From: Owenia fusiformis
Taxonomy: Eukaryota > Annelida > Polychaeta > Sabellida > Oweniidae
Length of the DNA stretch: 64,000 bases
Assembly (NCBI GenBank): GCA_903813345.2
Contig: CAIIXF020000001.1
Span: 23,269,915 to 23,333,914 of the forward strand
Direction: 5' to 3'
The translations under genes were made by a program, and so were the position numbers. The notes below the pieces were generated by a model, which saw only the letters and a list, made by a program, of their open reading frames with translations, was not told where the DNA came from and did not search any database. Position 1 is the stretch's first letter. The number at the start of each line of letters is the position of its first letter. This document shows positions 58,901 through 61,900 of this stretch, piece by piece.

Positions 58901-61900
58901 AATGCTTGTCTTATTCAAATAAGTGAAATGAGATGCATACATGTATGAACTGATTCCACAGATAGGTTTAATATTAGAAATAGACTTACACAAAAGCCCA
59001 GTTTAAACCAGTTGCATTTTGTTCCCAGTTTTTGTAATTACATTGTACATAAGACTTCTTACATGTAACTGAAAATATAAATAATGTCCCCATTTGATGT
59101 TTGTCGTCTGATTAAAACTACCTGTATTGAAATATTCACCATTTGGTTTTACTACAATTCATTTTAAACTTTCAGCCTGCAATGTTGGAGATGAGGGTGG
59201 CTTTGCCCCAAACATCCAGGTCAACGATGAAGGTATGTTTAAGTAATGCACTTTGATATGAAATATATTAAGATGGTTTGATGTTGAAAGATACAAAAAT
59301 GTTTATGTTCATAGAACCGTATCTTATATATTACAATACTACATCCCACCATTGTCATTGCAGCCCTTAAGTTGGTTACCACTGCTATTGCTGTTTATGT
59401 TCATAGAACCGTATCTTATATATTACTACATCCCACCCTTGTCATTGCAGCCCTTAAGTTGGTTACCACTGCTATTGCTGTTTATGTTCATAGAACCGTA
59501 TCTTATATATTACTACATCCCACCCTTGTCATTGCAGCCCTTAAGTTGGTTACCACTGCTATTGCTGTTTATGTTCATAGAACCGTATCTTATATATTAC
59601 TACATCCCACCCTTGTCATTGCAGCCCTTAAGTTGGTTACCACTGCTATTGCTGTTTATGTTCATAGAACCGTATCTTATATATTACTACATCCCACCCT
59701 TGTCATTGCAGCCCTTAAGTTGGTTACCACTGCTATTGCTGTTTATGTTCATAGAACCGTATCTTATATATTACTACATCCCACCCTTGTCATTGCAGCC
59801 CTTAAGTTGGTTACCACTGCTATTGCTGTTTATGTTCATAGAACCGTATCTTATATATTACTACATCCCACCCTTGTCATTGCAGCCCTTAAGTTGGTTA
59901 CCACTGCTATTGCTGTTTATGTTCATAGAACCGTATCTTATATATTACTACATCCCACCCTTGTCATTGCAGCCCTTAAGTTGGTTACCACTGCTATTGC
60001 TGTTTATGTTCATAGAACCGTATCTTATACATTACTACATCCCACCCTTGTCATTGCAGCCCTTAAGTTGGTTACCACTGCTATTGCTGTTTATGTTCAT
60101 AGAACCGTATCTTATATATTACTACATCCCACCATTGTCATTGCAGCACTTAAGTTGGTTACCACTGCTATTGCTGTTTATGTTCATAGAACCGTATCTT
60201 ATATATTACTACATCCCACCATTGTCATTGCAGCACTTAAGTTGGTTACCACTGCTATTGCTGTTTATGTTCATAGAACCGTATCTTATATATTACTACA
60301 TCCCAACATTGTCATTGCAGCCCTTAAGTTGGTTACCACTGCTATTGCTGTTTATGTTCATAGAACCGTATCTTATATATTACTACATCCCACCATTGTC
60401 ATTGCAGCACTTAAGTTGGTTACCACTGCTATTGCTGTTTATGTTCATAGAACCGTATCTTATATATTACTACATCCCAACATTGTCATTGCAGCCCTTA
60501 AGTTGGTTATCACTGCTATTGCTGTTTATGTTCATAGAACCGTATCTTATATATTACTACATCCCACCATTGTCATTGCAGCCCTTAAGTTGGTCACCAC
60601 TGCTATTGCCAAGGCTGGCTATGAAGGCAAGATTAAAATTGCAATGGACATTGCAGCCTCAGAATTCTATAAAGATGGAAAGTATGATCTAGACTTCAAG
60701 AGCAAAGACTCTGATCAAAGCAAGTGGGTAAGTAACGTGAGAAAAAGCACAATTGCCAGTAAATAAAATAAGTCAAGTATCAAGTCCCTTATCCCTCCAC
60801 TTTAAGTACTTTACTTCCAGAGCTGGAGGTGAGGTATGGGGAAATAGAAAATACAATAAAACATTTTTCAATCTGAATGCCTCAGGGACCAGTCAAAAGT
60901 GTTCATATTTCAAGGTTTTATGTGAGTCAATGGGAGGTGTTCATATAAGAGATGTTTGGATTAAGGAGGTGTTTGGATATACAGGTTTTCTATATCCCAT
61001 TGGACCACCTCATCTTCTCACAACTCTACTGACACGTAACTGTACTGAAAATGTGGTATATCATAATAAAGTTTATCAGAACTGAGGCCTATCGCAACAT
61101 GCTAAATGTAATATTCCTCTATGAATTGATTATTTTTTGAAAAACTTAATGGAACAAATCACTTAAATTACAATGCATTGCAGTTAACATCTGATGCCCT
61201 TGGTGAAATATACAAGGACTTCATTGCCAACTACCCAGTGGTTTCTATTGAAGATGCCTTTGACCAAGATGATTGGAAGGCTTGGTCCAAACTCCAATCA
61301 CAAATCGACATTCAGTTAGTAGGGTAGGTACATTATTATATATATATTGTGTCATTCATCCTATATGGGCATACACTATACAGTTATTACTTAATATGGT
61401 AAGAACATTGCCATATACAAGTTTCTTGACCATCTGGTAGTAAATTACCATATATAGGCATTTAATAGTATAAACATGAACATTTAAGATATTTTATTAC
61501 TCACCAAATCTCTTAATACTGATGAAAAAGTATCTTCAAAATGACACATTGAGCCTTCAGGGAACTTTTATTTACGTATGTATGTTTTTGTACCATTATT
61601 ATAAGCTTCTCTTATTTCCAGTGATGATCTGACGGTGACCAACCCCAAGCGAGTCCAGACAGCTATTGACAGTAAGGCCTGCAACTGTCTTCTTCTCAAG
61701 GTCAACCAGATAGGCTCTGTCACTGAGGCTATTGATGCGTAAGTTATGACACATAATGACAACTAACTTACTAGAGTACAAAATACATAGAAATATAAGA
61801 AATGAATGAATTAGATATGCTAAAATATTGTAGTCTGTTGATTTAGAAAACTAAGATAGCTAGTTAACGATTTGAGATACTTTGTCCCATTTAAATATTG

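What the first reader, a model, noticed from the sequence alone, without database searches (positions are those of the whole stretch)
59301..60727. Fifteen equivalent, in-frame splice acceptors for enolase exon 8
The intron 7/exon 8 junction is amplified into 14 exact 87-bp units, each with a full acceptor and the first 28 nt of exon 8. 87 nt is 29 codons and the unit has no stop in the enolase frame, so splicing to any acceptor keeps the frame: the product would gain 0 to 14 copies of a 29-residue hydrophobic segment (for example [14 protein letters not shown]). The donor is only 131 bp from the first acceptor. How the spliceosome picks the last site, or whether longer isoforms exist, is an open question in a housekeeping enzyme. 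The near identity of units 1-8 suggests recent expansion, possibly polymorphic between individuals.
Basis: partly seen in the sequence, partly recalled or inferred. Interest (0 to 1): 0.88.

Follow-up and report, generated by a model that had tools for sequence, protein, structure and literature searches.

The report
Tandemly repeated splice acceptor in enolase
In an animal genome, the start of one enolase exon, together with its splice signal, has been copied many times in a row; it is an unusually neat case of a known kind of repeat (a "mirage" minisatellite) and offers a natural test of how cells choose between near-identical splice sites.

Summary
The array is real: 15 copies of an 87-bp unit (59300-60609) carry 15 AG acceptors at constant 87-nt spacing, in frame with enolase exon 8. 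They are not all exact: units 2-8 are identical, 9-15 differ from them at 1-3 positions, unit 1 has a 3-nt insertion. Joining at the last acceptor gives an intact 436-residue enolase; no second enolase was found.

It is a "mirage" minisatellite, a tandem duplication of an intron/exon boundary, a kind described in amphioxus. The host is probably not amphioxus; it fits the annelid Owenia fusiformis. Enolase carries four such duplications (22 junctions); in 34 other loci 6 of 140 modelled junctions do, no more than nearby intronic points. In CCT, proteasome and myosin genes, all 18 upstream acceptor copies tested read into a stop codon, so the copy joined to the whole exon must be used there. Unit lengths show no bias to multiples of 3; the open frame in enolase looks accidental.

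Best reading: neutral minisatellite, last acceptor chosen across the exon. But the first acceptor is only 131 nt from the donor, where intron definition predicts the opposite, so this locus is a sharp natural test. No RNA was available.

The parts
59300..60609 (+). Tandem array, 87-bp period, 15.0 copies, spanning the intron 7/exon 8 boundary
   Evidence: TRF; unit alignment; the whole-genome DNA search found it only here
59176..59232 (+). Enolase coding exon 7 (57 nt); donor GTATGT follows
   Evidence: gene model and donor score 6.1
59363..59363 (+). First acceptor (AG ending here); 131 nt from the donor; score 2.9
59364..60581 (+). Fourteen tandem steps of 87 nt between the first and the last acceptor, each with 28 nt of exon 8 start and 59 nt of intron end; acceptors end at 59363 + 87k
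60581..60581 (+). Last acceptor, the one that gives an ordinary enolase; score 2.9
   Evidence: gap-free alignment with the two solved enolases shown, across the junction
60582..60727 (+). Enolase coding exon 8 (146 nt)
55818..62511 (+). Enolase gene, 12 coding exons, 436 aa
   Evidence: PF00113 exon hits; model and translation; PDB alignment
56367..56497 (+). Second junction duplication: exon 2 donor (true exon end 56381), 67 bp x 2, 84% identical
58118..58341 (+). Third: exon 5 acceptor (true AG ends 58320), three or more degenerate copies of about 70 bp, 62-80% to the reference copy
   Evidence: the spanning alignment is just at my 75% cut
58438..58750 (+). Fourth: exon 5 donor (true exon end 58462), two copies at 153-166 bp spacing; the 32-bp junction part 97% identical

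Best explanation
The feature is a junction-spanning ('mirage') minisatellite. A local tandem duplication copied the last 59 nt of intron 7 with the first 28 nt of exon 8; unequal exchange or slippage then expanded it and homogenised inner copies. The array is tolerated because the spliceosome pairs the acceptor with the exon 8 donor across the exon: only the last copy is joined to the whole 146-nt exon and its donor, so the fourteen upstream acceptors lie inside an ordinary 1349-nt intron 7 and are normally silent. Shown here: array anatomy, the intact enolase that needs the last acceptor, no good donor in the unit, like arrays elsewhere in the genome. Inferred: expansion route, exon-defined choice, silence of the upstream copies. 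The open frame is probably accidental.
For: Array and variants. Joining at the last acceptor gives a conserved enolase, aligned without gap across the exon 7/8 junction to the two solved enolases shown; all 7 PF00113 exon hits listed lie in this one gene. The six GT sites inside a unit score -8.1 to -2.7 against 5.0 for the true exon 8 donor, so units are unlikely to act as small exons. Like arrays: a CCT gene (L008, 9 acceptors of equal score; each of the 8 upstream ones meets a stop after 20 codons; the neighbouring exon joined at the last copy gives a continuous CCT-like sequence); a proteasome gene (L016, 7 acceptors of equal score and 1 degenerate; all 7 upstream ones meet a stop, and the join at the last copy is a continuous proteasome-like sequence); a myosin exon (L041, 4 acceptors at 61-nt spacing; all 3 upstream ones meet a stop); a putative 20-fold donor array (L009, 53 nt). 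Junction-spanning duplications: 6 of 140 modelled junctions against 22 of 406 intronic points 70-130 nt away (Fisher p 0.82), as expected if they are tolerated. Known parallels with RT-PCR: PMC3087553. Choice of the sites nearest across the exon when flanking introns are long: PMC9225289. Globin constructs with two 3' sites, the upstream one followed by 14, 55 or 205 nt of exon, were spliced only to the distal site, though very inefficiently: PMC5389562.
Against: No RNA was available. The first acceptor lies 131 nt from the donor; for short upstream introns PMC9225289 reports preference for the upstream 3' site, and with long flanking introns that preference is described for 3' sites as significantly reduced, which is weaker than its abstract's rule; it also tells that Reed and Maniatis saw the upstream of two competing 3' sites chosen. 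In the CCT and proteasome genes the first strong acceptor is 420 and 776 nt from the donor, so they do not cover the short-distance case. The last acceptor is not the strongest (2.9 against 3.3 for units 2-9). All upstream acceptors are in frame, so leaky use would not be removed by nonsense-mediated decay. Enolase has more such duplications than the survey (4 of 22 against 6 of 140, p 0.031), which a purely neutral reading explains only as chance, though enolase was the discovery gene.
Confidence: 0.82

Rival explanations
1. Leaky or regulated use of upstream acceptors makes enolase isoforms with 1 to 14 extra 29-residue segments.
For: All 15 acceptors score alike (2.4-3.3) and stay in frame without a stop; the first acceptor is only 131 nt from the donor.
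Against: The insert is strongly hydrophobic (GRAVY 1.31 against -0.23 for the enzyme) and falls inside a stretch aligned without gap to solved enolases. Unit lengths of like arrays are not biased to multiples of 3. In L008, L016 and L041 all 18 upstream copies tested read into stops, so upstream copies are ordinarily ignored there.
Confidence: 0.1
2. Intron definition: the first acceptor is the main site and the gene product normally carries 14 units.
For: 131-nt distance, and the upstream-site preference reported for short introns (PMC9225289).
Against: Would give a 1364-nt exon 8 and a 406-residue insert in the only enolase found in the assembly; only 2 of 70 surveyed introns are 131 nt or shorter.
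Confidence: 0.02
3. The array is under selection as decoy acceptors, slowing or tuning intron 7 removal.
For: Enolase holds four junction duplications, more than the survey rate (p 0.031). Duplicated 3' sites can be bound at the same time, and this inhibits splicing in vitro (PMC5389562, passages).
Against: Seven identical units point to recent expansion; junction-spanning repeats occur in other genes at the intronic background rate.
Confidence: 0.04
4. Assembly artefact: the array is a misassembled single junction, or its copy number is wrong.
For: No reads could be mapped; that tandem arrays are prone to copy-number error is general knowledge.
Against: Ordered unit variants with unlike ends; like arrays, each with its own unit, in other genes of the assembly.
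Confidence: 0.02

Closest known systems
Mirage minisatellites of amphioxus (Adh3, globins BflGb6 and BflGb9, troponin C, PGBD5)
   Same: Minisatellite-like tandem duplication of an intron/exon boundary, at acceptor or donor side, many copies keeping AG/GT; inner copies homogenised, cluster ends not; splicing reported as undisturbed (PMC3087553 passages; PMC3902484 passages; the 2002 Adh paper was not held).
   Different: Probable host is an annelid, not a cephalochordate; 15 copies against 6 and 3 in the two BflGb6 haplotypes; unit in frame and stop-free; first acceptor within 131 nt of the donor.
Intron gain by tandem duplication across an intron/exon boundary (potato RdRp; Rogers model)
   Same: Duplication of intron end plus exon start (PMC4974935, abstract and results section).
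   Different: There a cryptic donor from the duplicated exon part made a new intron; here the unit has no good donor by my matrix.
Variable internal tandem repeats at human exon-intron boundaries
   Same: Minisatellites that touch splice sites and can alter splicing (PMC2812944, passages).
   Different: Found in recently duplicated primate genes, about half of them within coding exons, some forming novel introns; not a housekeeping enzyme with a repeated acceptor.
Reed-Maniatis duplicated 3' splice site constructs
   Same: Identical 3' sites compete, the upstream one followed by only part of the exon (14, 55 or 205 nt; PMC5389562 section).
   Different: Designed, two sites; here natural, fifteen sites, 28 nt of exon in each upstream copy.

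Membership tests
Mirage minisatellite | Tandem minisatellite whose unit spans an exon/intron boundary | tested here: met
   87-bp unit = 28 nt exon + 59 nt intron, 15 copies
Mirage minisatellite | Inner copies homogenised, end copies divergent | tested here: met
   units 2-8 identical, unit 1 with an insertion, unit 15 with a variant of its own; but units 9-14 also vary, so homogenisation is one-sided
Mirage minisatellite | Normal mRNA splicing is not disturbed | not testable with these tools
   no RNA; the last acceptor is needed for the conserved enzyme
Mirage minisatellite | Copy number varies between haplotypes | not testable with these tools
   one assembly; the array was found at one place only
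Mirage minisatellite | Known host range: cephalochordates | tested here: inconclusive
   large contigs, GC, no GFP-family match and Fox-gene spread speak for Owenia fusiformis rather than amphioxus; species not proven
Intron gain by tandem duplication | A usable donor in the duplicated unit | tested here: not met
   six GT sites in the unit score -8.1 to -2.7 by an approximate matrix
Tandem mutually exclusive exons | Each copy is an exon with acceptor and donor | tested here: not met
   no good donor in the unit

The most novel reading that the evidence does not exclude
A housekeeping enzyme gene with fifteen near-identical in-frame 3' splice sites, the nearest within intron-definition range, makes a low-level ladder of in-frame enolase isoforms, and the genome (probably the annelid Owenia fusiformis) is rich in such junction arrays, making it a natural laboratory for splice-site choice and intron birth outside cephalochordates.
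Probability: 0.12. Interest if true: 0.75.

Novelty: new member of a known kind. Interest (0 to 1): 0.5.

Why it matters
If the last acceptor is used cleanly, fourteen near-identical 3' sites, the first 131 nt from the donor, are ignored in an essential gene: strong natural evidence that site choice is made across the exon. If not, the gene would make a ladder of in-frame isoforms that no stop codon removes. Either result could come from RNA reads. The wider point is that mirages, which in my searches I met only in papers on amphioxus (mostly listings of open papers), are common in another animal genome, so the proposed route from mirage to new intron could be tested outside chordates.

Tried and rejected
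Amphioxus as host: considered because mirages are known there. Held unlikely: ten of the contigs C1-C12 (all but C2 and C6, whose lengths I did not see) measure 31.9 to 62.2 Mb and sum to 400.9 of 498.3 Mb, leaving 97.4 Mb for C2, C6 and the other 513 contigs, which suits about 12 chromosomes; GC is 0.315-0.404 in the loci held; no GFP-family match (which warns that this does not show absence). That amphioxus has more chromosomes, higher GC and many GFP genes is recalled. Owenia fusiformis fits: 12 chromosomes, 505.8 Mb, Fox genes on nine of 12 chromosomes and tandem foxQ2 genes on two, against Fox hits on nine of C1-C12 with tight groups on C8 and C10; the chromosome numbers differ between paper and assembly. 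Phosphagen kinases did not settle the phylum.

Enrichment of tandem arrays at junctions: rejected (6 of 140 against 22 of 406, p 0.82). Selection for in-frame units: no sign; of 13 main array periods near exon edges printed (83, 28, 53, 96, 86, 94, 154, 48, 104, 127, 34, 260, 61; the enolase arrays not counted) two are multiples of 3. Left out of that count: 21- and 30-bp repeats in L006 and L032 and the periods 172 and 255 that TRF gives for the L008 array. TRF rows of three or more copies in all 34 loci, overlapping rows included: 10, 11 and 12 with period mod 3 = 0, 1, 2. Second enolase locus or haplotype copy: none found, within the limits those tools state. Units as small exons: no good donor. 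A nematode paper that holds both 'mirage' and 'minisatellite' (PMC7960049) means a transposon name (passages).

Rows dropped before the survey: of 60 CCT matches 49 were used, of 29 proteasome matches 27, of 17 aconitase matches 12, of 92 myosin matches 61 (counts used); the rest lay outside the stretches I fetched. The longest arrays I looked at (L008, L009, L016, L041) lie at edges which this rule left out, so 6 of 140 may be low; by profile-hit edges the count is 9 of 176 and 3 of 122. TRF at edges was run on 12 of 34 loci, those flagged; 11 of the 12 had an array near an edge. The first exon model had two wrong boundaries and that script ended in an error after printing its scores; corrected.

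Full report
Observation. The array is as described in outline. Fifteen acceptors with the same core lie at exactly 87-nt spacing, the last G of each AG at 59363 to 60581. TRF gives 59300-60609, period 87, 15.0 copies, 98% matches. A unit is 59 nt of intron end plus 28 nt of exon 8 start. Units 2-8 are identical; 9-14 differ from them at 1-3 positions; unit 15 (true exon) at 2; unit 1 has a 3-nt insertion. The first acceptor is 131 nt from the exon 7 donor. The frame is open from 59315 to 60763. The DNA search of the assembly found the unit only here.

Gene. I built a 12-exon model, 55818-62511, giving an intact 436-residue enolase when exon 7 joins the last acceptor. The protein aligns without gap across that junction to the two solved enolases whose alignments were shown. 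All seven PF00113 matches listed for the 498-Mb assembly are exons of this gene, so no spare enolase was found; the tool warns that a missing match does not show absence.

More of the same in the gene. Three further junctions are spanned by tandem duplications: exon 2 donor (67 bp x 2), exon 5 acceptor (degenerate copies of about 70 bp, just at my 75% cut), exon 5 donor (two copies at 153-166 bp spacing). That is 4 of 22 junctions.

Survey. I took 34 loci with 149 CCT, proteasome, aconitase and myosin exon hits and modelled 70 introns. A junction counts if a local direct repeat (offset up to 600 nt, at least 25 nt, at least 75% identity) spans it by 8 nt on each side. Result: 6 of 140 junctions and 22 of 406 intronic points 70-130 nt from a junction (Fisher p 0.82). 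One of the six (L029) is a weak 33-nt match. So such repeats are neither enriched nor clearly depleted at junctions. By profile-hit edges, 9 of 176 and 3 of 122. Enolase exceeds the survey (4 of 22, p 0.031), but it was the discovery gene. TRF arrays of period 20 or more cover 9.9% of the 199,524 surveyed bases.

Natural replicates. In a CCT gene (L008), nine acceptors of equal score precede the exon at 83- or 89-nt spacing; each of the eight upstream ones meets a stop after 20 codons. The neighbouring upstream exon joined at the last copy gives a continuous CCT-like sequence. A proteasome gene (L016) has seven acceptors of equal score and one degenerate; all seven upstream ones meet a stop, after 27 to 63 codons, and the join at the last copy is a continuous proteasome-like sequence. 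A myosin exon (L041) has four acceptors at 61-nt spacing; the three upstream ones meet a stop after 29 codons. L009 has 20 donor-like copies at 53-nt spacing (that donor is putative). If these conserved genes work, the acceptor joined to the whole exon is the one used, that is, the one nearest across the exon. Among the four acceptor arrays that I checked for stops (enolase, L008, L016, L041), enolase alone stays open.

How it probably works. PMC9225289 (abstract, passages and the 3'-site section) reports that sites nearest across the exon are favoured when flanking introns are long, and sites nearest across the intron when short, with a change near 250 nt. For 3' sites its section speaks of an upstream preference that is strong for short introns and significantly reduced for long ones, so the support for my reading is weaker there than for donors; it also tells that Reed and Maniatis saw the upstream of two competing 3' sites chosen. 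PMC5389562 (section), with globin constructs whose upstream 3' site was followed by 14, 55 or 205 nt of exon, saw splicing only to the distal site, though very inefficient. In L008 and L016 the first strong acceptor is 420 and 776 nt from the donor, in the exon-definition range; the L016 donor scores only 0.4 and rests on the continuous join. Enolase is sharper: 131 nt to the first acceptor, 1349 nt to the last, exon 8 of 1364 against 146 nt. Simple intron proximity would choose the first. The single intact gene argues that the last is used, but this is inference. In the survey 16 of 70 introns are under 250 nt and 2 are 131 nt or shorter.

Isoforms. Nothing in the sequence forbids them: scores are alike and no stop intervenes. 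Against them: the insert is hydrophobic (GRAVY 1.31 against -0.23), lies in a conserved stretch, and an open in-frame unit has a chance of about 0.12 (1/3 x 0.37). Unit lengths of like arrays show no bias to multiples of 3. The exonic part of the upstream units varies at two sites; by my reading of the frame one change is synonymous and one is not, too few to tell.

Known kind. [quoted passage not shown] That paper says RT-PCR and Adh3 data suggest that regular splicing is not disturbed, that two BflGb6 haplotypes have 6 and 3 units, and that mirages could give rise to introns. PMC3902484 (passages) adds PGBD5 and troponin C. The 2002 Adh paper was not held. My paper searches gave me no mirage outside amphioxus; this covers the held open papers and, for most, listings only.

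Host. Contig lengths, GC, Fox-gene spread over nine of C1-C12 (nine of 12 chromosomes in O. fusiformis) and assembly size 498 against 505.8 Mb suit Owenia fusiformis better than amphioxus. This is likely, not proven.

Verdict. A real, unusually regular member of a known kind, in a probably new host group; its value is as a natural test of splice-site choice.

Noticed in passing
window 28759-30432 and 53931-55679: Two long arrays of what looks like the same 136-bp unit (TGACCTT-rich) in opposite orientations, about 24 kb apart (compared by eye).
   Followed up: no
window 8527-11682, repeat at 10726-11095: A 1051-codon open frame (leucine-rich-repeat-like by eye) holds an in-frame 183-bp (61-codon) tandem duplication, 96% matches.
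   Followed up: no
window 19580-20412: Nested arrays of 135-155-bp units with AAAATGGC blocks.
   Followed up: no
G000 C9:37986009-37994334: Twelve matches to the same myosin-head stretch (profile about 18-84) in a row on one strand, upstream of further exons on that strand; looks like a cluster of alternative exons.
   Followed up: no
G000 C13:118673-243589: One aconitase stretch (profile 344-401) occurs four times in both orientations on contig C13, with one further exon hit.
   Followed up: no
L009 2859-3930 (reverse strand of the locus as fetched): Putative donor-side array in a CCT gene: 20 copies of a 53-bp unit, all with the same GT.
   Followed up: partly
L012, L013: Two phosphagen kinase genes whose kinase domain lies in one open frame of 432 and 440 codons; the first encodes a mitochondrial creatine kinase-like protein.
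   Followed up: partly
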